From a virus: DNA of 30,638 nucleotides. Below the pieces are notes generated by a model. The model was not told where the DNA came from. It made no database searches and saw only the letters and a program-made list of their open reading frames with translations. The stretch is from the IMG/VR virus record IMGVR_UViG_3300008266_000809, positions 1 to 30,638 of that record; one strand, 5' to 3'. Position numbers and translations under genes: made by a program. The stretch's first letter is position 1. Each line of letters opens with the position of its first letter. Shown here piece after piece: positions 1-17,565 of the stretch.

Positions 1-124
1 ATAAATTCTGAACAATATAATTTTGGTCAGTAAAAGTCTGAGGTCCGTTGGGTTGTTGAAGTGTTCTACCTATCAAAAAATCCCTAAATCCCCTTGTTGT
101 ATTAAAATCTAAATACGTTGGCAT
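1..124 (-). CDS. Partial virion-type protein, N-terminus only
   Basis: An open frame begins with ATG at 124 on the minus strand and runs off the left edge, giving about 41 residues starting MPTYLDFNTTRGFRDFLIG. I do not recognise the family with certainty. The TATTTAT element at 140-146 lies 15 nt upstream of the ATG, like those of the neighbouring tail genes, and the gene follows the tape-measure candidate on the same strand. Both suggest a baseplate or tail component. The start is supported by the promoter spacing and by the frame staying open through all visible sequence. The function is inferred from context only. Confidence 0.6.
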   Translation of the reverse strand, partial: MPTYLDFNTTRGFRDFLIGRTLQQPNGPQTFTDQNYIVQNL

Positions 125-139
125 TATATTGTTTTAATA

Positions 140-146
140 ATAAATA
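140..146 (-). promoter_or_regulatory. TATTTAT late-promoter candidate
   Basis: TATTTAT on the minus strand, 15 nt before the ATG at 124. It belongs to a family of similarly placed elements in this window. Confidence 0.5.
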
Positions 147-165
147 GATATAATTAAAAAATTTA

Positions 166-2118
166 TTACAAGTACAAGTAAGAACCAGGATTACCTACTT
201 GTATTCTTTCATCACCCACTCTTACATCTATTTTAAAAAGATGTGGTTGTGCGTTATTTACCGGTGCTGTATTTGTATTTGTTGTTGTAGTGGTATTTGC
301 TGCGGTAGTGGTATTCGTTGTTATTGGTGCTGCTGTTGTTGTTGGTTGAGCGACAGTACCTTGTTGTGTATTTGTATTTGTTGTTGGTGATTTTGTTGCA
401 GCGCTACCTTTTGGTGTTTTACTTTTAATATATTTATTATTTGCATCAACAATTGCATCCGCAATCCCGGTCATCATATTTTTTACTTCCGGTGCTTCTT
501 TAGTTGCGAATTTACTAAAATTATCTGCAGCCTTTTTAGGGTCTAACGGACCTCCCTTAACAAGTTCTTCATATAATTTATCCGCAGCTTTACCACCAGA
601 CCTTCTTGCTAATGCAGCAAGGAAGTTTAAATCTCTTTCAATATTTGTAACAGAGTTTGCTTGGTCTCTAACTATTTGTTCAGGTGTTCTATCTTGTAAT
701 TCTTTTTGATAAAATAATAATGTTTCTGCTTGTTTTTGCGATAAATTTTCTAACGCAATCTCTTTTGTGTCCTTATCTACACCTAACGCTTCTCTTATTC
801 TATCACTATTTAATTCTATCATCATTTTACCACCCTTCATCTGAGTAATATTAGTTAGGAATTCTTTCTGTTCGTCTTTTAAATCTAAACCACTAGCCAT
901 CATAGCAGCAGCTGCTGAAGTTCTTTCTGCGGAAGCAATTGCACCTTTTGCTAGTTCATCATAACTAACCCCTAATGCTTTAGCCATTTCTCTTGCTCTT
1001 CGTAAATTGACACCGGTAATTTCAAATCTACCTTGTTCTGCATTATATGTCGCTAAACTACTGGCGGCACCAATCAATGAATCTTGTAACCCTTCCACAT
1101 TATTTGTCGCCATGTACATTAATTTTAATGGGTCGTTAAAATCACCTATAGCACCACCTAATACTTGTAAGTTCGCGGCTAAATCAATTGCTCCTTCAGG
1201 ATTCATAACGCTTTCTGCAATCTTAAAAACTTCACTCATACTCATTCTGAATTCGGTTGCTTTTCTAATCATATTACCTAATCCTTCAATACCATTTTTA
1301 AAACCAAATTCATTTAATTTACCTATATTCTGTGATAATTCTTTCGTGGTGTTTTTTGATGAAAGACCTAATTGAAGTGATTTCATACCAACCTTTTCAA
1401 TCATTTCGACAGACTCTCTAGCTCCCATTCCAATATTCTCAAATCCAGGTAACATTCTAACTAATTCTTCTAAAGTACCTACGAACGCCTTTGCTGCAGT
1501 ACCTGCTTGTTTCCATGTTTCCGAATTTATAAATGCGAATTTACCCGAATCCCTCACCAAAACCTGAGATGACCTAACCAATTCATCAAACCCAATACCC
1601 ATTCTTAGTAACTCAGGATTTGCATCTGATAGTTCATTTCTTAAATCTTCCGCTAATTGACCGGTAACACCAATTTCTTCATTTACCTGAGTTCTTAATG
1701 CAGATTGTTGTTTCATGTATAGCTCCATGCTACTACCAAGTCCATCAATAATATTTTTACCAATTTGTTGTAAACTATTAACACCACCTTGTTTATCTAT
1801 TACCACATCAAGAAGATCAGTTATTTTAGTATATTCCTCAGTAATATTTGGTAATTGAGTACTACTTTGAGTTGCAATTCCTCCTCTAAATAATTTTGTT
1901 ACACCTTCAAAAACATTAGATGATTTAGTTGAAGTGGAGGTGGTTGATGTTGTTGTATTAAAACGACTAGTAATTTTCGCTTGTTCATCGGGTCTCATTC
2001 TTTCACCACTATTCCATTGATCTAATGCTCTTAGAAACGTGTTTGTTACTGAAGTTTCATCATTGTGTAAATAAAGATAATCATCTATTCTTGGTCTTGG
2101 TCCTTGTCCGTTTGCCAT
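166..2118 (-). CDS. Tape-measure-like tail protein (candidate)
   Basis: A 650-residue protein, helix-rich in the middle. Alanine-, methionine- and leucine-rich stretches around residues 280-420 include AASSLATYNAEQ and ERTSAAAAMMASGLDL. A Ser/Thr-rich stretch (about residues 52-66) and a Thr/Asn/Ala low-complexity linker (about 565-620) flank the helical core, and a short non-repetitive tail ends in GNPGSYLYL. Length is close to T4 gp29, the 590-residue tail-length determinator and baseplate-hub protein, and would fit a tail of about T4 length if each residue spans roughly 1.5 angstroms. It lies just downstream of the gp26-like hub gene and the tail tube gene. No transmembrane segment or enzymatic motif was seen. 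The tape-measure call rests on composition, size and position. A different elongated virion protein is possible. Confidence 0.55.
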   Translation of the reverse strand: MANGQGPRPRIDDYLYLHNDETSVTNTFLRALDQWNSGERMRPDEQAKITSRFNTTTSTTSTSTKSSNVFEGVTKLFRGGIATQSSTQLPNITEEYTKITDLLDVVIDKQGGVNSLQQIGKNIIDGLGSSMELYMKQQSALRTQVNEEIGVTGQLAEDLRNELSDANPELLRMGIGFDELVRSSQVLVRDSGKFAFINSETWKQAGTAAKAFVGTLEELVRMLPGFENIGMGARESVEMIEKVGMKSLQLGLSSKNTTKELSQNIGKLNEFGFKNGIEGLGNMIRKATEFRMSMSEVFKIAESVMNPEGAIDLAANLQVLGGAIGDFNDPLKLMYMATNNVEGLQDSLIGAASSLATYNAEQGRFEITGVNLRRAREMAKALGVSYDELAKGAIASAERTSAAAAMMASGLDLKDEQKEFLTNITQMKGGKMMIELNSDRIREALGVDKDTKEIALENLSQKQAETLLFYQKELQDRTPEQIVRDQANSVTNIERDLNFLAALARRSGGKAADKLYEELVKGGPLDPKKAADNFSKFATKEAPEVKNMMTGIADAIVDANNKYIKSKTPKGSAATKSPTTNTNTQQGTVAQPTTTAAPITTNTTTAANTTTTTNTNTAPVNNAQPHLFKIDVRVGDERIQVGNPGSYLYL

Positions 2119-2170
2119 AATATTAACTATTTTCTAATTCTATCATATAATTTATATAATATCTTCTTAT

Positions 2171-2177
2171 ATAAATA
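2171..2177 (-). promoter_or_regulatory. TATTTAT late-promoter candidate
   Basis: TATTTAT on the minus strand, 52 nt before the ATG at 2118. It is the most distant member of the set, so weaker than the others. Confidence 0.4.
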
Positions 2178-2249
2178 GGCATAGAGAGAATATCTCCATA
2201 GGAGAATCCTCTTTTAATTAGAAATAAAATTTCGGTTAACTGGTTCTTT

Positions 2250-2999
2250 TTATATTCCGTAGAAAGGGCGAAAGAATTCTACCCCAAATCCGATTACAAA
2301 TTGGATTTCTTCTCCTGATGGGGTTGTTGCTTTTTGGGTTAAATCTAACCCCGGTTTATTATCTGCAATAAATTTTCTAAAGTCCTGTGCATCTTTAATT
2401 GGTAGATTTTCAATTAAATTTCTGATATTCATTAAATCCTTATTTCCTGCAACCGATTTAATCATGAATTCAAGTTGTTTGGTCATAATCGGAGCATATC
2501 CATTACCATTCCAACTCTTTTGAATTTCTCTTATTTCCGCTTCTTGTTTTTGAGTCAAGAATTTGAAAGTAATATCTACTTTAGATTTTTCCATAAAATA
2601 TGAATATTCCCCATTTGCATCAGGTGTTAAATTGAAATCTTTAACTTTTAAAGTACTTAAATCTACTTTGGTTTCAAACTCTTTGTCTGTTTTCGGGTCA
2701 GTTAGTGTTACTGTATATTCTGAACCAAATGCGGTGTTTCTTAAAAAGATTAAAATCGCTTGTCTATCCTCTTCCGCCAATTCCTCAATTGAAATATCTT
2801 TATCCAAAATCTTTCTTTTCAAAAGTTCGGAGACTATCGCATTTGTTTGAATTAGGTTTGGTGCCGCTAAAATATTTTCGTCCGCTGCTGTTAGATATGC
2901 AACTCTAACTGATTTTTTTCCATTTGGATAATGAATACCTTTTGTTGGTAATTCTACCACATCATAAGAAATTGTTGGGTCTACTCTAAATTGTTCCAT
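2250..2999 (-). CDS. gp26-like baseplate hub / tail assembly protein
   Basis: A 249-residue soluble protein. The N-terminal pattern, ELPTKGIHYPNGK followed by a charged segment and ILAAPNLIQTNAIVSELLKRKI, resembles the T4 gp26/gp51 baseplate-hub family, as seen in many T4-like phages. T4 gp26 is 208 residues. The family helps form the central hub of the baseplate on which the tube starts. The middle holds a two-stranded-looking segment (VTLTDPKTDKEFETKVDLSTL) and then a helical part ending in GFGVEFFRPFYGI. It lies between tail tube and tape measure on the same strand, which fits a tail-assembly role. No TATTTAT element is seen immediately upstream. It starts 53 nt after the tube terminator, so either leaky termination or a diverged promoter feeds it. 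The family assignment is by pattern memory, not a search. Confidence 0.65.
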   Translation of the reverse strand: MEQFRVDPTISYDVVELPTKGIHYPNGKKSVRVAYLTAADENILAAPNLIQTNAIVSELLKRKILDKDISIEELAEEDRQAILIFLRNTAFGSEYTVTLTDPKTDKEFETKVDLSTLKVKDFNLTPDANGEYSYFMEKSKVDITFKFLTQKQEAEIREIQKSWNGNGYAPIMTKQLEFMIKSVAGNKDLMNIRNLIENLPIKDAQDFRKFIADNKPGLDLTQKATTPSGEEIQFVIGFGVEFFRPFYGI

Positions 3000-3051
3000 A
3001 GTATTAATTTAATCAATAACTATTGGAAAGTCAAGTTTTTGATAAAATAAA

Positions 3052-3078
3052 AAACCCCATGTGTTGAACATAGGGTTT
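3052..3078 (-). terminator. Intrinsic terminator after tail tube gene
   Basis: Arms 3052-3062 and 3068-3078 form an 11-bp stem around a 5-nt loop. One pair is a G-U wobble when read as minus-strand RNA. The stem is followed on the minus strand by TTTTTTATTTT. It sits 21 nt beyond the stop of the tail tube gene. Confidence 0.85.
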
Positions 3079-3098
3079 GTAAAATATTTGTTTTTGTA

Positions 3099-3587
3099 TT
3101 AGTAAACTAAGATACATCTATCTGGTCTCATTGAACAAGTGATAGTTGCCACATCATCTCTTGAATAATCAAGATCATTAAAGTTTAAGTCAGTAATGAA
3201 TGTACCTTGAAGTATCCATTTCTCAACCACAACACCAGTTGGGTCAAGCATTTCCAATTCAATGTCTTTTTTATAACCAGCAGCATAACCCATACGACCT
3301 GTAACAGATTCAGCGTGTAAACGGAACCATTCCATTAACGCCTGTGCCGCTGAAGGACCAATTGGGTCTTTGAAAGTTACTCTCATTTCATTCCATTCAA
3401 ATCTACCAGCAACATAAGTTGATGTATTGATAAATGGAATTGCAACAGAATTGATTTTTGCACTAGGTCTAGCCGTTGATGTCACATACCACTCGTTAAT
3501 ACCCAAAGATGATGGAAATCTAAGGATGAATCGGTTTACTCTTTTCGGTTCATATGGAACCGGCATTTTCATTAATAAATCTGCCAT
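3099..3587 (-). CDS. 19: Tail tube protein (gp19-like)
   Basis: A 162-residue protein, almost the same length as T4 gp19 (163). It contains the expected tube signature: an N-terminal RVNRFILRFPSSLGINEWYV segment, then RPSAKINSVAIPFINTSTYVAGRFEW, and KDPIGPSAAQALMEWFRLH in the middle. The end, YSRDDVATITCSMRPDRCIL, is typical of the family. The protein polymerises as stacked hexamer rings that form the inner tube through which DNA passes. The gene has its own upstream TATTTAT element and its own terminator, so it is likely a strongly expressed monocistronic late gene, as expected for a high-copy protein. No anomalies were seen. Confidence 0.95.
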   Translation of the reverse strand: MADLLMKMPVPYEPKRVNRFILRFPSSLGINEWYVTSTARPSAKINSVAIPFINTSTYVAGRFEWNEMRVTFKDPIGPSAAQALMEWFRLHAESVTGRMGYAAGYKKDIELEMLDPTGVVVEKWILQGTFITDLNFNDLDYSRDDVATITCSMRPDRCILVY

Positions 3588-3621
3588 TTTTTAAATAATT
3601 AAGTTTTTTTGTTATCTTCCT

Positions 3622-3628
3622 ATAAATA
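3622..3628 (-). promoter_or_regulatory. TATTTAT late-promoter candidate for tail tube
   Basis: TATTTATA on the minus strand, 34 nt before the tail tube ATG. It lies between the repeat element at 3702-3855 and the gene. Confidence 0.55.
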
Positions 3629-3701
3629 CTACGTATTTGAGAATATTTTATTTTTTTTGAAAAATCTTGACTTTGTCATTTTTTTTCGTTAGTTTTTTAC
3701 T

Positions 3702-3855
3702 ACCCAGTATCTAGGTTCCAGTATTCAGTATTAATATAACCAATTCCAGCATCTAGAATATTATATAAATACTAGAATATCTAGTTCTAGTATCTAGAAT
3801 AATAAATATAATATTATAAAACTAGTACTAGCATACTAGTTCCAGTATACTGGGT
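3702..3855. repeat. Degenerate 13-bp iteron / CTAG-rich dyad array
   Basis: Non-coding stretch with at least six related 13-mers on the plus strand: 3702-3714 ACCCAGTATCTAG, 3716-3728 TTCCAGTATTCAG, 3744-3756 TTCCAGCATCTAG, 3785-3797 TTCTAGTATCTAG, 3827-3839 ACTAGCATACTAG and 3840-3852 TTCCAGTATACTG. CTAG occurs nine times. Nested inverted repeats are also present: 3702-3710 with 3847-3855, 3757-3766 with 3806-3815, and 3770-3777 with 3785-3792. No open frame of note lies here. The layout resembles an iteron array or centromere-like protein-binding site more than a terminator. The function is unknown. Confidence 0.75.
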
Positions 3856-3861
3856 AAATAG

Positions 3862-3877
3862 TGTTCCACGTGGAACT
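3862..3877. promoter_or_regulatory. parS-like palindrome
   Basis: The sequence TGTTCCACGTGGAACT contains a perfect 14-bp palindrome at 3863-3876. The core equals the GTTCCACGTGGAAC form of the bacterial chromosomal parS site. It is also close to the general consensus TGTTNCACGTGNAACA, matching at all but the last base. parS is bound by ParB, which spreads along DNA. No parB or parA gene is present in the window, so any ParB would come from the host or from elsewhere in the phage. The match is seen directly. Function is inferred. Confidence 0.65.
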
Positions 3878-3918
3878 ACCATATTCCCCCTTTATGTTAC
3901 CGAGTTTTTATACAAAAA

Positions 3919-3944
3919 AAATCCTCTAGTTTTCTAGAGGATTT
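3919..3944 (-). terminator. 18: Intrinsic terminator after tail sheath gene
   Basis: A perfect 11-bp stem (3919-3929 with 3934-3944) around a TTTT loop, followed on the minus strand by a run of seven T. It lies about 20 nt past the sheath stop codon and contains two further CTAG sites. Confidence 0.9.
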
Positions 3945-3964
3945 ATATTTTATTTTAATGTTGA

Positions 3965-6871
3965 TTATATATTCTCAAATGAAGCACCAGTCGGAGTTAT
4001 ATTGAATTCAATCTCAATAAATTCAAGAGACCTAGTTGGTTTTAAGTAAATCTTTCCTCTCAATGTGTTTGCATCTAAATCCTCTGGATCACTAGACACT
4101 CTTACACGGAAATCGTAAAGACCTCTTTCTTTCTTTATAGACTCAAGAATAGGATTTACTAATCTCAAGAACTCTTGTCTTACTTGTTCGTCATTTTGTT
4201 CAAATAACAACCTTACAGATACCGCAGAAATCAATTTTCTTGCTCTCAACAATAATCTTCTAACATTAATTCTATCTAATGCAGATTCTCTTAATTGAAG
4301 AGTTTTATTACCCCAAATAATTGTACCTGTATCTGAGAATGTTGCGATAGGGTTAATTCTGTTTGAATATAAGGTGTCTCTTTCATCTAATGTAAGTTTC
4401 TTATTCGCTTTAATTGATTTAACAAGACCTCTTGAATAACCTGCAACTGCGAACCAAGGATACGATACATTATCGGTTAACGCAATATTTCTAACAACTT
4501 CACCTGTAGGCGGGATGTATAATTGTGTTGCGTTGTCTGTATCTCTAACCTGTATCCACGGCCAGTATGTCGCTGAATAGTTACTATCAATTGCGGAATC
4601 GTCAATCGCAGCAACTACTTCTTCAACACCTTCAGCACCAGTGAAATTAGGAGAGTTCATAATATATAATGAATCCGCTCTATCTTCTTCAATCATTTCT
4701 ATCGCTTGGTTAACCAATGAACTATGATCGTAGAAATTAATACCTGGTGTAGCGAATACATTTATATCAACCGCTTCAGGATTTTCAAATGTTTGAATAC
4801 CTTGAAGATACGCATAATAGTCAGAATTACCATTATTAACATCAAATACACCGCCATTATTTTGATTATTTGCGTTATATGTTGGTTTACCATAAATGTA
4901 ACCATCACCATAAGTTCTAACATTTCTATAGATATCCCAACCATCAAAACCACCACCAGCAGCAAATGTAAATTTACGATATCTGATGTCAGTTAATTTA
5001 TCTCCTACTGGTTGACCCTCCAAATCGTATGGAGTTGTAATATATGTGGTACCTGAAATTGTTGATGCGTTTACAGATAAGTGGAAACCAGATGTGGATG
5101 AAGTACCTTCAGCACCTTTATATTTAAATAAATCATTATCATATCTTGAACCTGTCTGATTTGATAAACCTAAAGATACTTTTCTTACTTTATCTCCATT
5201 TGATAATACCGCGGTACCATCAGCGTCATAATACATTGTATCGCCAGCATCAAAGTATTCTGTTTTATACAAAACATTACCTAAAGTACCACCACCAAAT
5301 GTTTGATTATTTACGAATCCTTTAAAACCAGCAGGGAATGCATCAACAGGTGCGTTATCTGCTATAGATAACATAATTAACTTAGAACGTAATTCATAGT
5401 CACCATTTGATGTACCTATTTTTTTAGCGACATAACCTGGTAAATCAGGATTCATACTACATCTTGAATATTTTTCTAAAACAACAGGATTATCATCAGT
5501 ATCATAGTAATCACGAACCAATAAATCAAAATCACCATTATCCAAATTAATATTAGCTATTTGAATTTTAACTGTGTAGTTTGCACTTTCACCATCAGGT
5601 ATTGTTATAATTTCAAACAAATCTGCAACTTTACCACCTCTAACCTCTGAAACAACCATTGGTGTTATCGGAGATAACCATTGACTCATAAAGTTTTCTG
5701 ATTCTGAATTTACAACTTTTGTTAAACTTAAACCTCTAACATATCCTTTTTGAAATGCAGATTGTAAGAATTTAGGGTATGCCTCATGAACGTATATTGG
5801 ATAGTCTGTTCTTGGTTTATCAAACACATCACTTCCCAAAACTTTAGTTATGTATTTTGAAGATGTTTGATCCATGGAACAAGTGAATTGTTTTGCACCA
5901 CCTGTTGTACCCGTTACGTTAATTATAAATTCTGCTAATGGATTTGTAGTAACACCACTTAAATCATCAATATCGAAACGAGATGAAAGAAATGTTTCAA
6001 GACTTAATGTGTTTTGTTGATAGAGACCTCTACTTCTAAGTGCAGCAACTATTAAATCTTTATACTGTGTTAACTCACCTGCATCGTATTTGAATCTAGC
6101 CACATCAAAATATCCATTTTGTGCGTCATATGCAAAAAGATAAGAATAAACACCATCAACATTTCCACTACCATCAAAAGATAAAAGTTTGTTTATCCAT
6201 TCTTTACCGTTAGGACTATCATCAGTATAAAACCCATTAAGTGGGGAAACTTGTTCAATTCCAAATAAAGATGATAATTCGGTAATCGCATTACCATCCA
6301 AATCGGTAACAATATATGCACCTAAATCAGGTACTAATCCCATAGTAAACCAGTTACCATCTTCAGAAGCACCATATCCACCAAAATTTGTTTCAATGTA
6401 ATCTGTTATTGTTGTTCCTTCAAATGAGAATATATTTGAAAGTTCATTATAAAAAATACTTGATGATGGGTTAGATGGGTCCATAGAGTCCACTACTAAA
6501 CTAGTATGTGCACTTGTATCTGCGGTAACACCAGCTAATGTTTGTATACCAAATGTTGTTGTTGGTTTATATCCAGTTAAACCAAGAATTCTTGTTACGA
6601 ATAGTTGGTTTGATTCTTCTAGATACGATTTAGCAACATACGGTAATTCATATTTTGGATTATCTGCACCGTCTTTTACAGGTGTAGTACTTCCAAAGTA
6701 TACTTTGAATTCATCAAAATTGGTAATTAATATTGGTTCAAATGCGGGACCCTTCAATGTCTCACCAACCAATCCGAGTGTTGTAACACCAACACTTTGT
6801 GCTACGAATGTTAAATCTTTCTCTGAGGTATATACACCGGGAGAAACGAATACTTTGTTTGAATTTGCCAT
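3965..6871 (-). CDS. 18: Tail sheath protein (gp18-like), enlarged
   Basis: A 968-residue protein against 659 for T4 gp18. The N-terminus has the sheath pattern FVSPGVYTSEKDLTF, then VGVTTLGLVGETLKGPAFEP and LPYVAKSYLEESNQLFVTRI. The conserved C-terminal half includes YPWFAVAGYSRGLVKS, RINPIATFSDTGTIIWGNKT, SALDRINVRRLLLRARKLI and a final segment ending IEIEFNITPTGASFENI. This part forms the contractile core that links subunits into the sheath. The extra length lies in the middle (roughly residues 110-740), where Gly-, Asp- and Tyr-rich beta-type sequence probably forms surface domains. The gene has an upstream TATTTAT element and its own terminator, so it is likely transcribed alone at high level late in infection. 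Confidence 0.95.
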   Translation of the reverse strand: MANSNKVFVSPGVYTSEKDLTFVAQSVGVTTLGLVGETLKGPAFEPILITNFDEFKVYFGSTTPVKDGADNPKYELPYVAKSYLEESNQLFVTRILGLTGYKPTTTFGIQTLAGVTADTSAHTSLVVDSMDPSNPSSSIFYNELSNIFSFEGTTITDYIETNFGGYGASEDGNWFTMGLVPDLGAYIVTDLDGNAITELSSLFGIEQVSPLNGFYTDDSPNGKEWINKLLSFDGSGNVDGVYSYLFAYDAQNGYFDVARFKYDAGELTQYKDLIVAALRSRGLYQQNTLSLETFLSSRFDIDDLSGVTTNPLAEFIINVTGTTGGAKQFTCSMDQTSSKYITKVLGSDVFDKPRTDYPIYVHEAYPKFLQSAFQKGYVRGLSLTKVVNSESENFMSQWLSPITPMVVSEVRGGKVADLFEIITIPDGESANYTVKIQIANINLDNGDFDLLVRDYYDTDDNPVVLEKYSRCSMNPDLPGYVAKKIGTSNGDYELRSKLIMLSIADNAPVDAFPAGFKGFVNNQTFGGGTLGNVLYKTEYFDAGDTMYYDADGTAVLSNGDKVRKVSLGLSNQTGSRYDNDLFKYKGAEGTSSTSGFHLSVNASTISGTTYITTPYDLEGQPVGDKLTDIRYRKFTFAAGGGFDGWDIYRNVRTYGDGYIYGKPTYNANNQNNGGVFDVNNGNSDYYAYLQGIQTFENPEAVDINVFATPGINFYDHSSLVNQAIEMIEEDRADSLYIMNSPNFTGAEGVEEVVAAIDDSAIDSNYSATYWPWIQVRDTDNATQLYIPPTGEVVRNIALTDNVSYPWFAVAGYSRGLVKSIKANKKLTLDERDTLYSNRINPIATFSDTGTIIWGNKTLQLRESALDRINVRRLLLRARKLISAVSVRLLFEQNDEQVRQEFLRLVNPILESIKKERGLYDFRVRVSSDPEDLDANTLRGKIYLKPTRSLEFIEIEFNITPTGASFENI

Positions 6872-6910
6872 CGATTGTTATTTGCTTAAATATATTTTTA
6901 TTGATTACTT

Positions 6911-6917
6911 ATAAATA
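6911..6917 (-). promoter_or_regulatory. TATTTAT late-promoter candidate for tail sheath
   Basis: AGATATTTATAAG on the minus strand, 39 nt upstream of the sheath ATG. Confidence 0.55.
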
Positions 6918-6999
6918 TCTTTATTTTATTGAAAGATTTATGTATTTTTAACGGTAAGTATCCTTTTATATACTTAATTATCTTTTTTTATCTTTTTAC

Positions 7000-7155
7000 A
7001 TGAAGAATAAGACCAAAAACGTAAAAATTAGTGATAAACACCATCAGATGTTAAAAAATCACTGTGAAAAAAACGGGCTTAAAATCTATAAGGTTATAGA
7101 AAAGTGGATTGAAAATCTATCAAAGAACGATAAGAAAGACATTTATGGTGAATAA
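7000..7155 (+). CDS. Small basic hypothetical protein (51 aa)
   Basis: ATG at 7000 to TAA at 7153-7155 encodes a 51-residue protein beginning MKNKTKNVKISDKHHQML and ending KKDIYGE. It is Lys-rich, with a beta-like start (VKIS) followed by two predicted helices (KHHQMLKNHCEKNG and IYKVIEKWIENLS). This arrangement recalls small ribbon-helix-helix DNA-binding proteins, but that is only a pattern resemblance. It lies on the plus strand between two minus-strand tail genes and ends 3 nt before the stop of the gp15-like gene. No TATTTAT element precedes it, so it may be an early or middle gene. Codon use looks ordinary for this genome. Confidence 0.65.
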   Translation: MKNKTKNVKISDKHHQMLKNHCEKNGLKIYKVIEKWIENLSKNDKKDIYGE

Positions 7156-7158
7156 CGA

Positions 7159-8394
7159 TTAGTAAAAATATGTAACAGTTATCTTAGAATTTACTATAGG
7201 ATTTATTAGTAGAGTTATTTCATTTTTATTTGTTACATCATATCCTACAGAATTTTCTTCTATAAGACCATTTATATCCAACATAATCAAAGCGGCAATA
7301 GTGTTACTTGTGGTGAATACATTTGTTGTACCATCATAAATAAATGTTTCTTTAGCCAAGAATATTTTATTTCCCCATAAATCAGTTGGTGTTGGGTTTT
7401 TTCCTTTGTAATAAATTATAGTTATTTTACTACCAACAAGAGGAGGAGAAACAAATGTTATTTTTGATGTTTTTGCAATATGGTAATAATCAACATCTTT
7501 AATTTGTACAACACCATTTATTGATACACTTACTAAAATTGCTATAGTTTCACCCACACTAAATGATGTTTGTATTCCATCTGCAACTATTGATGTGACA
7601 AATATTTCATCAATATTCTGTACGCTGGTTTTTACTATTTTAGGTAATTCTTCAAACTCTTGCATTATAAACATTCTACTGATAGCCGGTTTAACTTCAA
7701 ATTCTTCACTGTCAATAAGAAAACCTAACATTGTAAATTTGTAATTCTGTAAATAAAACCTACGACCATCTAATGTATCCATAGGTGTATTATCATCAAT
7801 AGAGTCTAAAACTATAGGAATATAATGTCCTTTAACTGACGTATACGCTTGTCTTGATGAAAAGTTTTGCATTACAAGTTTATTCAACTTATTTAAGTCT
7901 CTAAATTTGTTACAAACTATTGTCACTTCATATGATATATCTACAGCAATTGGTTGCGGTATTTTGTATATGTCTGCACCAAATTGATTACCATCCCAAG
8001 TAGGTACCGTAGCGTAGTGGAATTGTTTTCTAACCGGTATTGTTCTTTGTACTGAAGGATTTGTACCTAATTGAACTTCAGGTTTTCTTATCACCGCCAT
8101 AAAAGGAACCTGAACATTACCATCTTTATCTGAAAATTCCCAATTATTAGTGTACTCCGCCCATCTTTGAATGGTCATTATTTTATCAATAATAGGTACT
8201 TTTTTACCATCAGAAACTATCTGTAAATTATTTTTTACAAATTCCAACATACCCAAATCTAAGTCATCATGTAAAACAGAATCAGGAAGGTAAGTATCGG
8301 ATTTAGTTATCCTATCCAATAATTCTTGTCTTCTTTCAAGTAACTCTTTTTGAGTATAAACACTAAAATTTGTTTTTCTTTTAGGTAATGGCAT
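7159..8394 (-). CDS. 15: Tail sheath stabiliser / tail terminator (gp15-like)
   Basis: A 411-residue protein from the ATG at 8394, which is preceded by GAGGA seven nt upstream. An ATG 39 nt further upstream (8433) lies inside the previous gene and is less likely. The central part (VDISYEVTIVCNKFRDLNKL, QNFSSRQAYTSV, FYLQNYKFTMLGFLID) resembles T4 gp15, which caps the finished tail and joins it to the neck. T4 gp15 is 272 residues, so this protein is longer. The excess is at the C-terminus, where two similar modules of about 60 residues occur (about 7162-7599 on the DNA). Each has a DG...F start, an INGxxxxxxxxY centre and an SKITxxY end. It is translationally linked to the gp14-like gene upstream. 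Confidence 0.7.
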   Translation of the reverse strand: MPLPKRKTNFSVYTQKELLERRQELLDRITKSDTYLPDSVLHDDLDLGMLEFVKNNLQIVSDGKKVPIIDKIMTIQRWAEYTNNWEFSDKDGNVQVPFMAVIRKPEVQLGTNPSVQRTIPVRKQFHYATVPTWDGNQFGADIYKIPQPIAVDISYEVTIVCNKFRDLNKLNKLVMQNFSSRQAYTSVKGHYIPIVLDSIDDNTPMDTLDGRRFYLQNYKFTMLGFLIDSEEFEVKPAISRMFIMQEFEELPKIVKTSVQNIDEIFVTSIVADGIQTSFSVGETIAILVSVSINGVVQIKDVDYYHIAKTSKITFVSPPLVGSKITIIYYKGKNPTPTDLWGNKIFLAKETFIYDGTTNVFTTSNTIAALIMLDINGLIEENSVGYDVTNKNEITLLINPIVNSKITVTYFY

Positions 8395-8395
8395 A

Positions 8396-8908
8396 TTATA
8401 TTCCTCTAAATTCAGATTCCTGTACCGGAGCACAAGTTATTGTTCTATAATGCGGTTTGTAACCAAACATATTATGTTTATTATCAGATACAACCGTACC
8501 GTCATTTGTAACCGTATAATATCTAATTCTGTCTTCTGTTTCCTGATAACCTACATAATCACCATATCTTATATTAATCTTTAATTCTTCTAAATGTTTT
8601 ATGTACACAGACACAATTAAATTTCCGGGTTCTTGATAACGAACTAAACCAGCTTTATATGAAGCATTCTTAGGTTCTTCAATCTTAACCAGAGCATTAA
8701 ATTCTATAGGAGGGAAAAACTTTATTTGGTCTTTCCCGACTTCACCGTATACATCATCGGTGTCTGTTTTTTGTCTATCAACTCTAAATAGAATTAATTT
8801 CATATTTAAGTCACCATGAAGATATTCTTGACCCATTTGAATATTAAGATCAATATCATCAACAGATACGAACTTAGATAATCTAGTTATTGGTAAACGG
8901 TTTGTCAT
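8396..8908 (-). CDS. 14: Neck protein (gp14-like)
   Basis: A 170-residue protein with no membrane segment. Features include QEYLHGDLNMKLILFRVDRQ, VYGEVGKDQIKFFPPIEFNALV, a RYGDYVGYQETEDRIRYYTV strand-rich segment and an end in TITCAPVQESEFRGI. The DDVYGE and GDYVGY elements are placed like the corresponding segments of T4 gp14, a neck protein that seals the head-tail junction. The identification leans on its position directly before the gp15-like gene, which keeps the T4 order 14-15. The stop lies 2 nt before the gp15-like ATG. A TATTTAT element lies only 6 nt before the ATG. Confidence 0.6.
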   Translation of the reverse strand: MTNRLPITRLSKFVSVDDIDLNIQMGQEYLHGDLNMKLILFRVDRQKTDTDDVYGEVGKDQIKFFPPIEFNALVKIEEPKNASYKAGLVRYQEPGNLIVSVYIKHLEELKINIRYGDYVGYQETEDRIRYYTVTNDGTVVSDNKHNMFGYKPHYRTITCAPVQESEFRGI

Positions 8909-8914
8909 AATATA

Positions 8915-8921
8915 ATAAATA
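8915..8921 (-). promoter_or_regulatory. TATTTAT late-promoter candidate for neck genes
   Basis: TACTATTTATTAT on the minus strand, 6 nt before the gp14-like ATG. If used as a -10 element it would give an almost leaderless transcript. Confidence 0.45.
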
Positions 8922-8966
8922 GTACAAACTTTTATTCTATTTAACTATATTTTAAGTATTTAGATT

Positions 8967-10709
8967 ATGATTATAGAAATTGAAGCAAGAGAAATACTCT
9001 TAAATTATGAAGGTTCTAATAACCAATTATTAGAATGGAAAAAAAGATTTTCCGAACAGAAGAGTTTTAAACTAACCAGACCACAGTCTGAGTATGTTTT
9101 AAAATATCATGACATTAAACCAAAAGTTGCAAGGAAATATATTAAAATAGCGAAAACATTCGGACAAAAAATTATGGACGAAAGATTACTTCCTGAGGTA
9201 CCTGAAAAATTTTGGTGTGAAAAATTGTTATGTGAATCAGATAAAGCGTTTCATATATGGGGTAAAATTATTGAAACTGACCCATTAAATTCTTTTTGGA
9301 TACCAAAAGCAGCAGTTTTACAAGAAGAAAAAAAATTAGATAGAGAAATTGATTACAGTAAATATAGTAATAGACCTCCACTTGAACATCAAAAAGAAGC
9401 GATAGAAAAATTGTTAGCCAACAATAAGTTTATCTTGGCTGATGACATGGGTTTAGGTAAAACAACATCTGCGGTTATTGCGTCTTTAGAAAGTGGTGCA
9501 AAAAAAATATTAATTGTTTGTCCCGCGTCACTTAAAATAAATTGGGAAAGAGAAATCAAAAATTATTCCGATAAAAAAATATTAATCGTTGAAGGTAGAA
9601 AGTGGGGTTCAACATTTGATTATTATATCATAAACTATGATATCATTAAAAACTTTCACACAACTGATAAATCAGAAGACAGTGAGGATTATAAACTTTT
9701 AGTCAATATGAATTTTGATTTAGCAATAGTTGATGAAGCACATTATGTATCAAATACAACAGCAAATAGAACAAGACTATTAAATGATGTCTTAAGTAAA
9801 ATTCCCAAGGTTTGGTTATTAACTGGTACTCCTATGACATCAAGACCAATTAACTATTTTAATTTATTAAAAATTGTTGACTCACCATTAACACTTAATT
9901 GGCAAACATATGTAAGAAGATATTGTAAAGGTTATCAATTTACTGTTGGTAATAGAAAAGTGTGGAATACAAGTGGTGCAAGTAATTTAGATGAATTAAG
10001 AGATTTAACTAAATCTTATGTTTTAAGAAGAATGAAAACTGACATTTTAGATTTACCGGAAAAAACAATTACTCCTGTATTTTTAGAATTGACAAATAAA
10101 ATGTACGATGAGGAATTAGAAGAGTTTACAAAAATAACAAGTGAAAATAAAAATAATGAAACGATAAGTGTTACACTTAATCGTCTTATGAAAATAAGAC
10201 AACTAATTTCTTACGAAAAAATTCCATATACTTGTGAATTAATTGACAAGTGTTTAGAAATGGGTAAAAAAGTTATAGTCTTTACTAACTTCACAGCAAC
10301 ATTGGACACTCTTCATCAAAAATATAAAAAAAATTCTGTTGTTTTAGATGGAAGAATGTCAAAAGATAAAAGACAAGAAAGTGTTGACAGATTTCAAAAT
10401 GACGATAAAGTAAAAGTATTCATTTCGAATATCATTGCTGGAGGTGTAGGTATCACATTAACCGCTGCGGACACAGTAATTATGAATGACTTATCTTTTG
10501 TTCCTGCTCACCATAGTCAAGCAGAAGATAGATCGTACAGATACGGGCAAAAAAATAGTGTTCTCGTTTATTATCCAATTTTTGAAAACACTATTGAAAA
10601 GATTGTTTATAATATTTTACAGAAAAAGAAAAATATTATTGACCAAGTAATGGGTGATGGGGAATATTCTGAATCTTTCAGTAAAGACTTAATTAAAGAG
10701 CTTATTTAA
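8967..10709 (+). CDS. SNF2-family DNA helicase/translocase
   Basis: A 580-residue superfamily 2 ATPase of the SWI2/SNF2 group, closest in layout to SMARCAL1-type annealing helicases. Walker A is DDMGLGKT (159-166), followed by ILIVCPASLKINWEREI (motif Ia), the DEAH box (256-259) and LLTGTPM (about 284-290). RRMKTDILDLPEKT follows. The second RecA lobe has VIVFTNF, the GRMSKDKRQ segment and SNIIAGGVGITLTAAD. Motif VI is QAEDRSYRYGQ. Such enzymes move on double-stranded DNA, remodelling forks or displacing proteins. In a phage it may take the role T4 gives to UvsW-type helicases in recombination-dependent replication. There is no TATTTAT element, so early or middle expression is likely. It diverges from the neck genes and its 3' end overlaps the nuclease-like gene by 21 nt, tail to tail. 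Confidence 0.92.
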   Translation: MIIEIEAREILLNYEGSNNQLLEWKKRFSEQKSFKLTRPQSEYVLKYHDIKPKVARKYIKIAKTFGQKIMDERLLPEVPEKFWCEKLLCESDKAFHIWGKIIETDPLNSFWIPKAAVLQEEKKLDREIDYSKYSNRPPLEHQKEAIEKLLANNKFILADDMGLGKTTSAVIASLESGAKKILIVCPASLKINWEREIKNYSDKKILIVEGRKWGSTFDYYIINYDIIKNFHTTDKSEDSEDYKLLVNMNFDLAIVDEAHYVSNTTANRTRLLNDVLSKIPKVWLLTGTPMTSRPINYFNLLKIVDSPLTLNWQTYVRRYCKGYQFTVGNRKVWNTSGASNLDELRDLTKSYVLRRMKTDILDLPEKTITPVFLELTNKMYDEELEEFTKITSENKNNETISVTLNRLMKIRQLISYEKIPYTCELIDKCLEMGKKVIVFTNFTATLDTLHQKYKKNSVVLDGRMSKDKRQESVDRFQNDDKVKVFISNIIAGGVGITLTAADTVIMNDLSFVPAHHSQAEDRSYRYGQKNSVLVYYPIFENTIEKIVYNILQKKKNIIDQVMGDGEYSESFSKDLIKELI

Positions 10710-11804
10710 TCTTTCTGTTTCATCAATAACCATTTTCTTAATTCCTTTGTCTTCAGCATCAGGGAATTGAATTGTAACTGTTTTGGTTTCTTCATCATAA
10801 ATTATTTTATTAATATCACCATCCTTAGTCATTACAACATTTATGTTGTTTTTACTCGCTATTTTCATTAAATTTTTAAGTTCTTCAAACATATCGATTA
10901 TTTTTATTTTTTTTACTACAACTTCTTCAGGAAAAACCCATGTCGTATCTTGTAGTTGTTTATTTTTATTTAAATCATTTTTTAACATTATTATACTATC
11001 CTTATAAACCATTACCCAATAATGACAATTAGAACGAGTACTAAATTTAGATTTAGTTAGAATTTGATTTTCATTGTTGATGTAATAATTTGCATATTTC
11101 ACTTGAATTTTTTCTTCAAAATTATTTGAGTTAACTACCCAAAAATCAACACCAGTTTCTCTATCTAGTGGATCACCTAATCCACTTGAACATTTCATTC
11201 TTAAATAATTTGGGAAAAATTCGTTAATAAATCTTTTGAATAACATTTCACCAATGTCACCTATCATCATTACGTTTGCACATATTGACATCATTTCTTT
11301 ACACTGAGGTGAATTATAATCCAATAATAAATTACTGTATTTTCTAACAATTAATAAAAGACTATGAATTTTTTCATATGTCGATTCAATATCTTCTCTC
11401 CAATTCTCACCTATTCTTATTTTTTCAGTGTATATTATTTTACCATCAATTTCAATATAATCTTTTCCGGATTTTTTTAATGATTCCAAAATAACATTAC
11501 ATTGTGAAAAAAGATATAACTGTCCACTTAAATTAGTATTAAGTGTATTTAATCTGTGCCACCTATTCAATAACACAACACCAAAATCAGTTAATTTAGA
11601 TTGAGGGTGAGGATTTCTTAACCATAAACCTAATGGTTCATAATATTCTTTTAATATAAAATTAATTGAGTCAGATATCCGGTATTTTATACATTTATCT
11701 TTGTACTTATATTCCCCGATTTCACTTAATACTTGAAAAAAAGTTACCTCATATCCTACCTTTTTATCCGTCATTAATCTATTGTATATTTCAGGTGTCA
11801 TCAT
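10689..11804 (-). CDS. PD-(D/E)XK / Mrr-like nuclease candidate
   Basis: A 371-residue protein that I do not recognise as a whole. A restriction-endonuclease-like core is visible at about residues 180-240: a helix with E186 (MIGDIGEMLFKRF), then GVD220FW, then EEKIQVK236YA. The order E, D, QxK is the one used by Mrr-like members of the PD-(D/E)XK superfamily, where D and K help bind the catalytic metal. The N-terminal 175 residues have no known motif but look mainly helical. The C-terminus is basic and helical and ends in DETERLNKLFN. The start could be 11804 or 11801 (two adjacent ATGs). It converges on the SNF2 helicase gene with a 21-nt overlap. It could process phage DNA, attack host DNA, or act against competing phages. 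None is shown. Confidence 0.6.
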   Translation of the reverse strand: MMTPEIYNRLMTDKKVGYEVTFFQVLSEIGEYKYKDKCIKYRISDSINFILKEYYEPLGLWLRNPHPQSKLTDFGVVLLNRWHRLNTLNTNLSGQLYLFSQCNVILESLKKSGKDYIEIDGKIIYTEKIRIGENWREDIESTYEKIHSLLLIVRKYSNLLLDYNSPQCKEMMSICANVMMIGDIGEMLFKRFINEFFPNYLRMKCSSGLGDPLDRETGVDFWVVNSNNFEEKIQVKYANYYINNENQILTKSKFSTRSNCHYWVMVYKDSIIMLKNDLNKNKQLQDTTWVFPEEVVVKKIKIIDMFEELKNLMKIASKNNINVVMTKDGDINKIIYDEETKTVTIQFPDAEDKGIKKMVIDETERLNKLFN

Positions 11805-11855
11805 TATTAGTTAAAAATACTAAAAATATTTGGTATTTAGTAATAACTTTTAAGA

Positions 11856-11862
11856 TATTTAT
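11856..11862 (+). promoter_or_regulatory. TATTTAT late-promoter candidate for gp13-like gene
   Basis: AAGATATTTATTG on the plus strand, 17 nt before the ATG at 11880. Confidence 0.55.
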
Positions 11863-11879
11863 TGTAATAACACAAAGAT

Positions 11880-13004
11880 ATGTCAGCAACAATAATAACT
11901 CTACCTGAAAAGGAAAAATTATATACACAGGTTTTTCACCTATTAGGTATGCCTGTTAGGGGAATTGAATTAACAGAAGAACAAATGGATACGTTTTTAG
12001 AATTAGCGGTATCTGAGTATGAACAATACGTTAATGATTGGTTAATTGAATCACAGTGGTCTGCTTTAGCCGGATTGGATGTTGACACACAATCCTTAAC
12101 AAGAGCTCTGACCACAAGAGCAATGGACTATGAAACACAATATACATATTCATATTCAAAAATCGTTGGATTACAAACAGGTGGTCCATGGGAGTTGAAA
12201 AAAGATTATTTCACATTAACAGGAGGAACTCAGACATATGTAATCCCCGCAGGACGTGAAATAAACGAGTTATTATGGTTCACAAGAGCAACTCTTACCG
12301 ATTCAATTGTTGATCCGTTTTTGGGTGGATTTGGTGGTCTTGGTGGTGTTGGTTTTGGTGGTGTTGGTGGATTCGCTCAAGTTGGTGCGTCAGGGTCCTA
12401 TTTTATGTTACCAGCGTTTGATTTGTTATTAAGAATGCAAGATAGAAATATTAAAAATAGATTAATTGGTGGTGAATTAACTTATAGAATTACTGCGGGA
12501 CCAAATGGGACTAAAATAGTACATTTATATAATGTACCCGGTGGTAAATTTGACTTCGGGTCTGTACAACAAAATAACTACCAAGTGTGGTATTGGTATT
12601 ATGATACAACTACAACATCAAGAGATGAATGTTTAGAAAAAAATAAAGACATAGTAAAACTTCCGTCTGATGTTATGGTTGAAGCGTTAACTTGGGATAA
12701 AATGAATAAACCTTCACAAAATTGGGTAAGAAAATATTTGACAGCATATGCTAAGGAAGGTCTTGCAAGAATATGGGGAAAATACTCCGGTGACTTAAAA
12801 GTACCTGACCAAGATATTAAACTTGACTATACTTCTTTATTAACCGAAGCAAAAGATGAAAAACTTAAATTAGTTGAAGAATTACAACAAAGACTAGAAA
12901 GACTCCGCCCCGAAAAACTTTTAGAAAGAAAAGGAAACGAAGCGGAGAATCTTAACAAATCTCTGAAGTATAGACCAATGGTGTCACCATTTAATGTTAT
13001 TTAA
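11880..13004 (+). CDS. 13: Neck / head-completion protein (gp13-like)
   Basis: A 374-residue protein with the strongly conserved N-terminus of gp13-like neck proteins in T4-like phages. Segments include LTEEQMDTFLELAVSEYEQY, then NDWLIESQWSAL, YTYSYSKIVGLQTGGPWELK and VIPAGREINELLW. These proteins sit below the portal and help hold packaged DNA until the tail joins. Residues about 143-168 form a Gly/Phe-rich low-complexity segment (FLGGFGGLGGVGFGGVGGF), probably a flexible or pore-facing loop. The C-terminal region is helical and charged (KLKLVEELQQRLERLRPEKL). T4 gp13 is 309 residues. In T4 genes 13, 14 and 15 are adjacent; here gp13 is on the opposite strand and separated from gp14 by helicase and nuclease genes. 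Its 3' end overlaps the polymerase gene by 4 nt. Confidence 0.8.
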   Translation: MSATIITLPEKEKLYTQVFHLLGMPVRGIELTEEQMDTFLELAVSEYEQYVNDWLIESQWSALAGLDVDTQSLTRALTTRAMDYETQYTYSYSKIVGLQTGGPWELKKDYFTLTGGTQTYVIPAGREINELLWFTRATLTDSIVDPFLGGFGGLGGVGFGGVGGFAQVGASGSYFMLPAFDLLLRMQDRNIKNRLIGGELTYRITAGPNGTKIVHLYNVPGGKFDFGSVQQNNYQVWYWYYDTTTTSRDECLEKNKDIVKLPSDVMVEALTWDKMNKPSQNWVRKYLTAYAKEGLARIWGKYSGDLKVPDQDIKLDYTSLLTEAKDEKLKLVEELQQRLERLRPEKLLERKGNEAENLNKSLKYRPMVSPFNVI

Positions 13005-15898: not shown

Positions 15899-15900
15899 GT

Positions 15901-15970
15901 GTTATAAATTTGGTTGACCTATTAGCTTACTGTAAATCAGTAGTTTGTCTTGTATTCCAATAATTATAAC
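15901..15970 (-). promoter_or_regulatory. Foldable 5' leader of DNA polymerase gene
   Basis: The 70 nt just upstream of the polymerase ATG (15898) begin with GTTATAA and end with TTATAAC (minus-strand reading), a perfect 7-bp closing stem. Inside is a hairpin TACTG-ATTTA-CAGTA. In T4, gp43 represses its own translation by binding a hairpin at its ribosome-binding site. A similar role here is only inferred. A tRNA was considered and rejected. Confidence 0.35.
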
Positions 15971-15984
15971 AAAAAAGTTCGAGA

Positions 15985-16353
15985 TTAAAAAATATTGATG
16001 TAAAGTTTTTCTCTGATTGGAACTATTAATTTGTTTGTGGGATTCAAATCGGTATCTAAAAATTGTATGGTAACCGTACCCTCAAACCTACCTACTTGAG
16101 AAGTTTGTTCTTCGGTGAATCTATATGTAATATAATATTCATCTGTTGTTTGATTGTATTTTTTTGTTCTTAATACCAAATTACATTGACCATCAAATAT
16201 AATAGGGTCACCAGTTGAAACTTCTGACATTTCAAACGTTATTTCAGAATTTTCCAATAAATCATTAAAAGATGATTTATCGTTTTTACCATCGTCAATT
16301 AATCTTAATTTTAATATCGGGTCTGTTGCGCCTTTTCTTATAAAAAATTCCAT
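15985..16353 (-). CDS. BppU-like baseplate/fibre-associated protein
   Basis: A 122-residue beta-rich protein. Its pattern is FFIRKGATDPILKLRLID, then NDLLENSEITFEMSEVSTGD, YYITYRFTEEQTSQVGRFEG, and finally NKLIVPIREKLYINIF. This is the pattern of short phage upper-baseplate proteins (BppU N-terminal-like domain) that connect receptor-binding proteins to the baseplate. It has no signal peptide or membrane segment. Its ATG lies directly after the stop of the small membrane protein gene at 16355-16591, so the two are probably co-transcribed. It lies downstream of the fibre cluster, which supports a host-attachment role. Family naming is from pattern memory, so moderate confidence. Confidence 0.65.
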   Translation of the reverse strand: MEFFIRKGATDPILKLRLIDDGKNDKSSFNDLLENSEITFEMSEVSTGDPIIFDGQCNLVLRTKKYNQTTDEYYITYRFTEEQTSQVGRFEGTVTIQFLDTDLNPTNKLIVPIREKLYINIF

Positions 16354-16354
16354 A

Positions 16355-16591
16355 TTATAAAAAATGATTTAAAAAGACAATATTTCCCCCCATGAGAGTC
16401 CATAATGCATCTTTATAATCCGGAGTACCGGTGTCGGACAAATAATCATACACTTCTTTTCCTATTGAAATAACCATTAAAAAAATTAATGAAATCAATG
16501 GATGAAATACTAAGTTAAATAATGTGTAAATAATTACACCGTAAACAAAGTGATTTGCTTTATCTATTGGTATTAAAGGTAACTTATTCAT
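16355..16591 (-). CDS. Small membrane protein, YfiM/VanZ-like signature
   Basis: A 78-residue protein with two hydrophobic segments: about residues 17-43 (VYGVIIYTLFNLVF, then PLISLIFLMVISI) and a weaker one near the C-terminus (MGGNIVFLNHFL). Polar motifs are DKANHFVYG near the start, GKEVYDYLSD after the main segment, and TPDYKDALW. DKxxHF followed by GKExxD and a late D pair is typical of small membrane proteins of the YfiM/DUF2279 or VanZ-like type. Their biochemical function is not established. In a phage it could act in lysis, envelope modification or exclusion. Position between a BppU-like gene and fibre genes gives little guidance. It starts 4 nt after a TATTTAT element. Confidence 0.6.
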   Translation of the reverse strand: MNKLPLIPIDKANHFVYGVIIYTLFNLVFHPLISLIFLMVISIGKEVYDYLSDTGTPDYKDALWTLMGGNIVFLNHFL

Positions 16592-16595
16592 ATCA

Positions 16596-16602
16596 ATAAA
16601 TA
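16596..16602 (-). promoter_or_regulatory. TATTTAT late-promoter candidate
   Basis: GATATATTTATTG on the minus strand, 4 nt before the ATG of the small membrane protein. It would yield a leaderless mRNA if used as a -10 element. Confidence 0.4.
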
Positions 16603-16613
16603 TATCGAAAAAA

Positions 16614-16638
16614 AAATCCCTTCGTTTAGAAGGGATTT
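16614..16638 (-). terminator. Intrinsic terminator after 238-aa fibre protein
   Basis: A 10-bp perfect stem (16614-16623 with 16629-16638) around a 5-nt loop, followed on the minus strand by a run of T. It lies just past the stop at 16657. Confidence 0.9.
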
Positions 16639-16656
16639 ATTATTAAAATTTAAAAA

Positions 16657-17373: not shown

Positions 17374-17389
17374 TGTAAATTATTTTATT

Positions 17390-17396
17390 ATAAATA
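17390..17396 (-). promoter_or_regulatory. TATTTAT late-promoter candidate
   Basis: AAATATTTATAAT on the minus strand, 16 nt before the ATG at 17373. Confidence 0.55.
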
Positions 17397-17435
17397 TTTG
17401 GTTATTTCAAATTATTCTTTTTATTTTAAAAAATT

Positions 17436-17565
17436 TTAATTAGTGATACCCGTTATTATTAAGGTGTTACCAGAAATGAAAAATAATTTATTATTTCCAT
17501 CGGTATCTTGTAAAATATTTTTATTAAAACTACCTGACACGCTAATCGAACCTGTAAAGATAAAA
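17436..17565 (-). other. Out-of-frame C-terminus of the tail fibre gene
   Basis: One T added to the TTTT run (plus-strand AAAA, 17562-17565) restores a frame reading FTGSISVSGSFNKNILQDTD and then GNNKLFFISGNTLIITGITN, stopping at 17436-17438. This gives about 41 residues of fibre-like composition, against the odd hydrophobic tail in the present frame. Confidence 0.7.

What the first reader, a model, noticed from the sequence alone, without database searches (positions are those of the whole stretch)
3862..3877. Chromosome-type parS site in a phage tail-gene gap
A perfect palindrome, GTTCCACGTGGAAC, lies in a very AT-rich gap between sheath and tube genes. It equals the core of the chromosomal parS form and fits TGTTNCACGTGNAACA except for the last base. 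A GC-rich 14-bp palindrome is not expected by chance here. Possible roles: recruiting host ParB to segregate or position phage DNA, using ParB spreading to silence late genes early in infection, or titrating host ParB. No ParB gene is visible in the window.
Basis: partly seen in the sequence, partly recalled or inferred. Interest (0 to 1): 0.85.

Follow-up and report, generated by a model that had tools for sequence, protein, structure and literature searches.

The report
Host-type parS site in a phage
A family of large phages, probably infecting Bacteroidota, carries a short DNA palindrome that matches the site bacteria use to pull their chromosomes apart, yet no gene for the protein that binds it was found in them, which suggests (but does not show) that they borrow the host's.

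Summary
GTTCCACGTGGAAC (3863-3876) lies between the sheath and tube genes and is the only exact copy in a 142-kb contig of the same phage. It is not chance: among 95 distinct related loci a match with at most 2 mismatches lies in the gap before the tube gene in 49, in the gap after it in 18, in both in 0, in neither in 28 (shuffled gaps 0.05-0.16%). The 18 form one clade, so the site moved once.

The string is a published chromosomal parS form. No ParB-type domain was found in 21 related records, no ParA-type in 7. Changes fall on both arms and do not favour G-U over A-C, which speaks for a DNA-bound dimer, not an RNA hairpin.

Most likely it loads host ParB onto phage DNA. Against: only 6 of 27 diverged lineages keep a parS-perfect site, 28 of 95 loci have none in either gap, chromosomes of possible Bacteroidota hosts could not be searched, and neither host nor binding is shown. 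New variant of a known kind.

The parts
3863..3876 (.). perfect 14-bp palindrome GTTCCACGTGGAAC, parS-type; with flanks TGTTCCACGTGGAACT at 3862-3877
   Evidence: conserved in relatives
3588..3964 (.). 377-bp gap between sheath and tube genes; the longest stretch without an ORF of at least 60 aa in contig G001
3919..3944 (-). intrinsic-terminator-like stem-loop after the sheath gene (11 pairs, then T run); in aligned relatives the palindrome follows such a stem
3965..6871 (-). tail sheath gene, 968 aa
3099..3587 (-). tail tube gene, 162 aa
3842..3853 (.). second palindrome CCAGTATACTGG, at the edge of a CTAG-rich block
3701..3856 (.). CTAG-rich block bounded by a 24-nt imperfect inverted repeat; the densest CTAG cluster in G001, and the matching gap is the densest in G002 and G003; its role and link to the palindrome are unknown
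3621..3628 (-). TATTTATA on the gene strand, 34-41 nt before the tube start; promoter-like, recurs upstream of ORFs in G001-G003

Best explanation
The palindrome is a chromosome-type parS site carried by a phage lineage in which no ParB was found. The proposed mechanism: dimers of the host's chromosomal ParB recognise it on the injected or replicating phage DNA, load as CTP-dependent clamps, slide into the flanking tail-gene region and build a ParB patch. Through that patch the phage DNA is tied to the host's partition machinery, which holds or spreads the replicating genomes in the cell. SHOWN here: the sequence match, the conservation against diverged flanks, the single intergenic location with one relocation, no ParB_N or CbiA domain found, and substitution patterns that fit a DNA-bound dimer. 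INFERRED: binding by host ParB, clamp spreading, and any effect on positioning. The downstream effect is the least certain step (I give positioning alone about 0.2).
For: (1) The exact string is a published parS: TGTTCCACGTGGAACA in P. putida, nearly so in P. aeruginosa and M. xanthus (table passage); the 9 library papers that contain GTTCCACGTGGAAC are, by title and abstract start, about chromosome partition or plasmid-stabilisation vectors. (2) Conservation: 15 of 80 loci fetched by sheath similarity have an exact GTTNCACGTGNAAC after the sheath gene, and none of the 80 has one elsewhere in its locus; 58 of 80 have it with at most 3 mismatches, in 15 of 18 sheath clusters. (3) Before the tube 49, after it 18, both 0, neither 28 of 95 distinct loci; the 18 are one clade, SH-aLRT 98 (17 of its rows in the tree): the site moved, so it is not tied to one promoter or one 3' end. 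(4) The Y/R position 4/11 equals position 5-12 of chromosomal parS, reported as the tolerated one. (5) At least one intact half-parS GTTYCAC in 63 of 67 sites and 25 of 27 representatives (weak, since a single change always leaves one arm whole); P. aeruginosa ParB binds single GTTCCAC/GTTTCAC heptamers, and B. cenocepacia ParBc1 keeps 49% of its score on a half-parS. Extra half-sites stand beside the palindrome in 18 of 58 loci, from three sequence groups (chance 3.3% per gap). (6) Twofold symmetry: 12 changes on the left arm, 15 on the right; G-U 6 against A-C 7. (7) No ParB_N in 21 records. (8) In IMG/VR at large, parS-type 16-mers avoid ORFs (35/120 and 51/120 outside ORFs, background 10% and 14%), a palindromic control does not (5/120, background 6.5%). 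(9) A more distant phage, G014, has two exact intergenic copies. (10) ParB does load on phage DNA with an engineered parS during infection (lambda-parS, T7::parS; passages).
Against: Only 6 of 27 representatives keep a parS-perfect 14-mer; the centre often changes (CG to CA or TG in 12 of 28), and chromosomal ParB is reported to tolerate mainly the outer position and 5-12. Half-site binding was reported as absent in B. subtilis and weak in Caulobacter. 28 of 95 loci have no site in either gap. Close relatives of G014 (L232-L247) lack its site. Host unproven, and chromosomes of possible Bacteroidota hosts were not searchable here. A single parS need not help a lytic phage. The palindrome keeps company with other conserved elements (CTAG block, CCAGTATACTGG), which suggests a complex site for other proteins. 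No binding data.
Confidence: 0.5

Rival explanations
1. The palindrome is the binding site of another dimeric DNA-binding protein, phage- or host-encoded (for example a regulator or an origin or packaging protein), whose half-site GTTCCAC resembles parS by convergence. Together with the CTAG block it would form a unique cis site of the phage.
For: The centre varies among lineages more than chromosomal parS is reported to do, as if it followed a changing protein. The gap also holds other conserved inverted elements and is the densest CTAG cluster in each of three genomes. Essentially single-copy and intergenic, as an origin or packaging site would be.
Against: The site left the CTAG gap for the next gap in one clade, so it is not part of one fixed composite. 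The string is exactly a parS form including the tolerated position, which convergence does not predict. G014, with a 46%-identical sheath, has the same string at two other places. No candidate protein was identified; none was looked for beyond Pfam ParB_N and CbiA.
Confidence: 0.3
2. Decoy: the site is a host ParB site, but its use is to draw ParB away from the chromosome once the phage genome is in many copies, stopping host chromosome segregation; it is not to position phage DNA.
For: Plasmid-borne parS cuts Caulobacter viability about 100- to 1000-fold, in step with affinity, and weak sites do not (passages).
Against: In most lineages the site is degraded to one good arm, the wrong direction for a decoy; one copy per genome; a lysing cell hardly needs it.
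Confidence: 0.12
3. It is an RNA hairpin (GUUCC-ACGU-GGAAC) beside a terminator, working at the RNA level as a 3'-end or boundary element.
For: It follows an intrinsic terminator in aligned relatives and in L621 and L625 lies inside a terminator-like loop. All five stem pairs are standard or G-U in 21 of 27 representatives.
Against: G-U and A-C combinations are equally common (6 and 7 in pairs 1-5), so neither strand favours wobble pairs; changes fall on both arms alike. No T run follows it in the window. Rfam gives no match at the gathering score (best: Phe_leader, 28.9 bits against a cut-off of 55, over the terminator).
Confidence: 0.08
4. A chance palindrome without function.
For: Some relatives have lost it; at 2 mismatches genome-wide hits equal the control.
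Against: Exact or near copies at the same place across sheath identities of 65-69% to the window with diverged flanks; shuffled rate 0.16% or less per gap.
Confidence: 0.01

Closest known systems
Chromosomal parS of the ParABS system (P. putida and P. aeruginosa TGTTCCACGTGGAACA, M. xanthus TGTTCCACGTGGAACG; table passage)
   Same: identical 14-bp core; palindrome; same tolerated position; intergenic here
   Different: on a phage; no ParB or ParA domain found in the phage; single, not clustered near oriC; often one arm degraded in relatives
Half-parS sites bound by P. aeruginosa ParB (PMC10419367, passages)
   Same: GTTCCAC or GTTTCAC heptamer, which most phage variants keep in one arm
   Different: those are hundreds of scattered chromosomal sites; here one conserved place per phage
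Partition loci of phage-plasmids such as P1 or mycobacterial extrachromosomal prophages (search listings and abstracts; P1 details recalled)
   Same: centromere-like site on a phage replicon
   Different: those encode their own partition proteins; none was found here
Engineered lambda-parS and T7::parS (passages)
   Same: a parS on a lytically growing phage genome gathers ParB supplied by the cell
   Different: man-made labels, ParB expressed for imaging

Membership tests
Chromosomal parS site | matches the chromosomal consensus TGTTNCACGTGNAACA | tested here: met
   15 of 16 in the window, 14 of 14 core; but only 6 of 27 diverged lineages keep GTTYCACGTGRAAC
Chromosomal parS site | tolerated variation at position 5-12 of the 16-mer (4/11 of the core) | tested here: met
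   4 is C or T, 11 is G or A, also unsymmetrically; 5 T and 4 A in 27 representatives; parS tolerance
Chromosomal parS site | central CACGTG kept | tested here: inconclusive
   kept in the window; changed in many relatives. Published parS of a few species also differ there: S. coelicolor, T. thermophilus, D. radiodurans
Chromosomal parS site | bound by ParB, which then spreads | not testable with these tools
   needs EMSA, CTPase and loading assay, ChIP
Chromosomal parS site | the host uses the same parS form | not tested
   host unknown; Bacteroidota genomes could not be drawn (error; single genome-contig scan spent). Literature passage only: two Bacteroidetes, B. caecimuris and M. intestinale, are among 12 genomes with ParABS homologues and consensus parS at 2 mismatches
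Self-contained partition locus (plasmid or phage-plasmid type) | parB and parA on the same replicon | tested here: not met
   PF02195 0 of 21 records, PF01656 0 of 7 records; the records may be incomplete
Intrinsic terminator or RNA hairpin | compensatory or wobble changes keep the stem; T run follows | tested here: not met
   G-U 6 against A-C 7; no T run at the palindrome in the window

The most novel reading that the evidence does not exclude
A widespread lineage of large, ParB-less phages maintains one 'borrowed centromere': a host-type parS kept in tail-gene intergenic regions, able to move to another gap, through which host ParB is loaded on viral DNA so that the host's chromosome-segregation system positions or organises the viral genomes. 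Other phage families (e.g. L057-like) may have done the same independently.
Probability: 0.4. Interest if true: 0.88.

Novelty: new variant of a known kind. Interest (0 to 1): 0.7.

Why it matters
If host ParB binds here, phages without partition genes hitch on to the bacterial chromosome-segregation machinery, a link between phage replication and host DNA organisation for which I saw no report in the listings (one search showed 25 of 75 papers; subscription journals and preprints are not held). It would explain why parS-type 16-mers in virus contigs sit outside genes about three times as often as random positions do, and it gives a directly testable site with natural variants of graded strength.

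Tried and rejected
Rejected: chance; RNA hairpin; an operator fixed to the tube promoter (the site lies after the tube gene in one clade); a phage-encoded ParABS. GC skew of G001-G003 gave no clear origin at the site. The genome-contig scan with a 14-sheath alignment found 2 loci, a Prochlorococcus single-cell contig (43%) and a Deltaproteobacteria MAG (40%), which did not settle the host; the Prochlorococcus record had no parS-type match with up to 1 mismatch and 1 control match. The second near copy in G087 lies inside a 224-aa ORF and looks like chance. The gap itself has no blastn match in the phage collection, nor do window bases 1-8500 by megablast.

Rows dropped before counts: one search used 95 distinct of 237 loci (tube identity at least 78%, both genes found in order, at least 150 nt past the tube, identical pairs merged); the tree holds 92 of these 95, with L136 and L137 (3 mismatches) counted as having the site; windows were chosen by their match to the consensus, so the element's information content there is inflated by selection; one search left out L296, a weak match 642 nt from the sheath gene, giving 27 of 28 representatives, 2 of 80 loci were too short.

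Full report
WHAT IS THERE. The window is a virus record of 30,638 bases. Its palindrome GTTCCACGTGGAAC at 3863-3876 lies in the 377-bp gap between a tail sheath gene and a tail tube gene, both read on the minus strand. Read in gene direction the order is: sheath stop, intrinsic-terminator-like stem (3919-3944), palindrome, CTAG-rich block with CCAGTATACTGG, a TATTTATA promoter-like box, tube start. A larger IMG/VR contig, G001 (141,857 bp), is the same phage (99.99% over window 1-17558); there the gap is the longest non-ORF stretch, the densest CTAG cluster, and the only place with an exact GTTYCACGTGRAAC.

IS IT MORE THAN CHANCE. Among 80 loci found with the sheath protein (the best 80 of 597; one is this phage, the others 65-69% identical), 15 have an exact GTTNCACGTGNAAC 37-92 nt after the sheath gene, and none has one anywhere else in its locus. 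With up to 3 mismatches 58 of 80 have it, in 15 of 18 clusters of sheaths at 85% identity; 20 do not and 2 are too short. In 28 long related records searched whole, 4 hold exact copies (G014 two, G024, G025, G033) and the reversed pattern has no match even with one mismatch; G024 and G025 are one lineage (tubes identical).

THE SITE MOVES. In a sister clade the palindrome is missing before the tube gene but present 41-95 nt after it. Over 95 distinct loci (of 237 given; filters in Tried and rejected): before 49, after 18, both 0, neither 28; shuffled gaps reach the same match quality in 0.16% and 0.05%. On a protein tree of 92 of these the 'after' rows are one clade (17 rows, SH-aLRT 98) and the 'neither' rows need at least 9 changes. 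I read this as one old site, one relocation and several losses; the zero in 'both' therefore rests on one event, not on 18 independent ones.

WHAT THE SUBSTITUTIONS SAY. In 27 representatives whose flanks are under 70% identical, substitutions outside the Y/R position fall 12 on the left arm and 15 on the right. In the five outer pairs, G-U-type and A-C-type mismatches are equally common (6 and 7). An RNA stem would favour G-U on its strand; a symmetric DNA site bound by a dimer predicts what is seen. 25 of 27 keep at least one intact GTTYCAC arm, but only 6 keep both arms. The centre is often hit: CG becomes CA or TG in 12 of 28.

PARS LITERATURE. The string equals parS of P. putida, and nearly so those of P. 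aeruginosa and M. xanthus (table passage in PMC7022226); the 9 library papers containing it are, by title and abstract start, about partition or plasmid-stabilisation vectors (listing). The position variable here (4/11) is the one found tolerant in chromosomal parS; one arm alone keeps 49% of the binding score for B. cenocepacia ParBc1 (PMC5450999, passages). P. aeruginosa ParB binds single GTTCCAC or GTTTCAC heptamers, whereas B. subtilis ParB was not seen to, and Caulobacter ParB does so weakly (PMC10419367, passages). In Caulobacter parS sites the second half is the conserved one (PMC5815017, passage). So a site with one good arm can still be a ParB target, but this depends on the ParB.

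NO OWN PARB. Pfam ParB_N (PF02195) has no match at E 0.1 in 21 related records; it rings in 11 of 14 control genomes, Bacteroides ihuae among them. CbiA/ParA (PF01656) has none in 7 records and rings in 14 of 14 controls. None of the records carries a completeness estimate, so absence is not proof.

HOST. Shine-Dalgarno-like tetramers precede 2 of 107, 3 of 119 and 7 of 120 ORFs in G001-G003 and the upstream bases are A-rich, which I take, from general knowledge, as Bacteroidota-like. The DNA polymerase's nearest named relatives are Salinibacter phages (10 of 18 records, about 24% identity), then Nostoc and Anabaena phages. Sheath and tube have relatives in Microcystis phage Mel-JY01 and Flavobacterium phage immuto, and a Prochlorococcus single-cell contig has a 43% sheath. 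Bacteroidota is likelier, cyanobacteria not excluded. In two Bacteroidetes of a mouse-gut panel ParABS homologues are reported but no known condensin (PMC10197239, passages), so SMC recruitment should not be assumed.

WIDER PICTURE. In IMG/VR, 35 of 120 TGTTCCACGTGGAACT and 51 of 120 TGTTTCACGTGAAACA occurrences lie outside ORFs (background 10% and 14%), against 5 of 120 for TGTTCCAGCTGGAACT (background 6.5%). All three scans stopped at 120, so abundance is not compared; a second control gave only 9 hits, 0 outside ORFs. Of 50 TGTTCCACGTGGAACT contigs 10 have a ParB_N-like match, 6 over the cut-off. In an unrelated family (L057-like) the palindrome follows a stop codon in 19 of 27 loci, 16 exact and 3 GTTCCATGTGGAAC. 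A distant relative, G014, has two exact intergenic copies, although its close relatives lack them in the gap examined.

VERDICT. A real, conserved, mobile, parS-type site in a phage lineage in which no ParB was found. That host ParB binds it is the best single explanation (0.5); another GTTCCAC-binding dimer is the main rival (0.3). What binding would do (position, organise or silence phage DNA, or disarm the host) is inference.

Noticed in passing
window 3701-3856; L138 6818-6948: CTAG-rich block, the densest CTAG cluster in each of three phage genomes; in one subclade it is a 16-nt tandem array CTAGTATCTAGGATCT (8.3 copies).
   Followed up: partly
L148 8709-10322: A 537-aa ORF on the opposite strand inserted in the sheath-tube gap; by eye it looks like a homing-endonuclease-type gene; not searched against families.
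   Followed up: no
window 3621-3628 (minus strand): TATTTATA on the coding strand within 90 nt upstream of 15 of 107, 21 of 119 and 25 of 120 ORFs in G001-G003; likely a phage promoter box.
   Followed up: partly
G003 contig about 81266-81410 (L228 1266-1410): tRNA-like sequence with an apparent insert in the anticodon region (ARAGORN calls no tRNA there), followed by TTGTTTCATGTGAAACAA, a near-parS palindrome between genes.
   Followed up: partly
L621, L625 about 40 nt after the tube gene: The parS-like palindrome sits inside the loop of a terminator-like stem (CGTTA...TAACGAATTTTTTTTT).
   Followed up: no
L655-L673, directly after the stop codon of a 93-aa protein gene: An unrelated phage family (L057-like) keeps the same palindrome right after a stop codon in 19 of 27 loci.
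   Followed up: partly
window 17558, 27569 and 30040: Compared with contig G001 the window lacks about 159, 99 and 56 bases at these points: indels between near-identical phages.
   Followed up: no
G014 contig 3290-3303 and 91046-91059: Two exact GTTCCACGTGGAAC copies, both between genes, in a phage with a 46%-identical sheath.
   Followed up: partly
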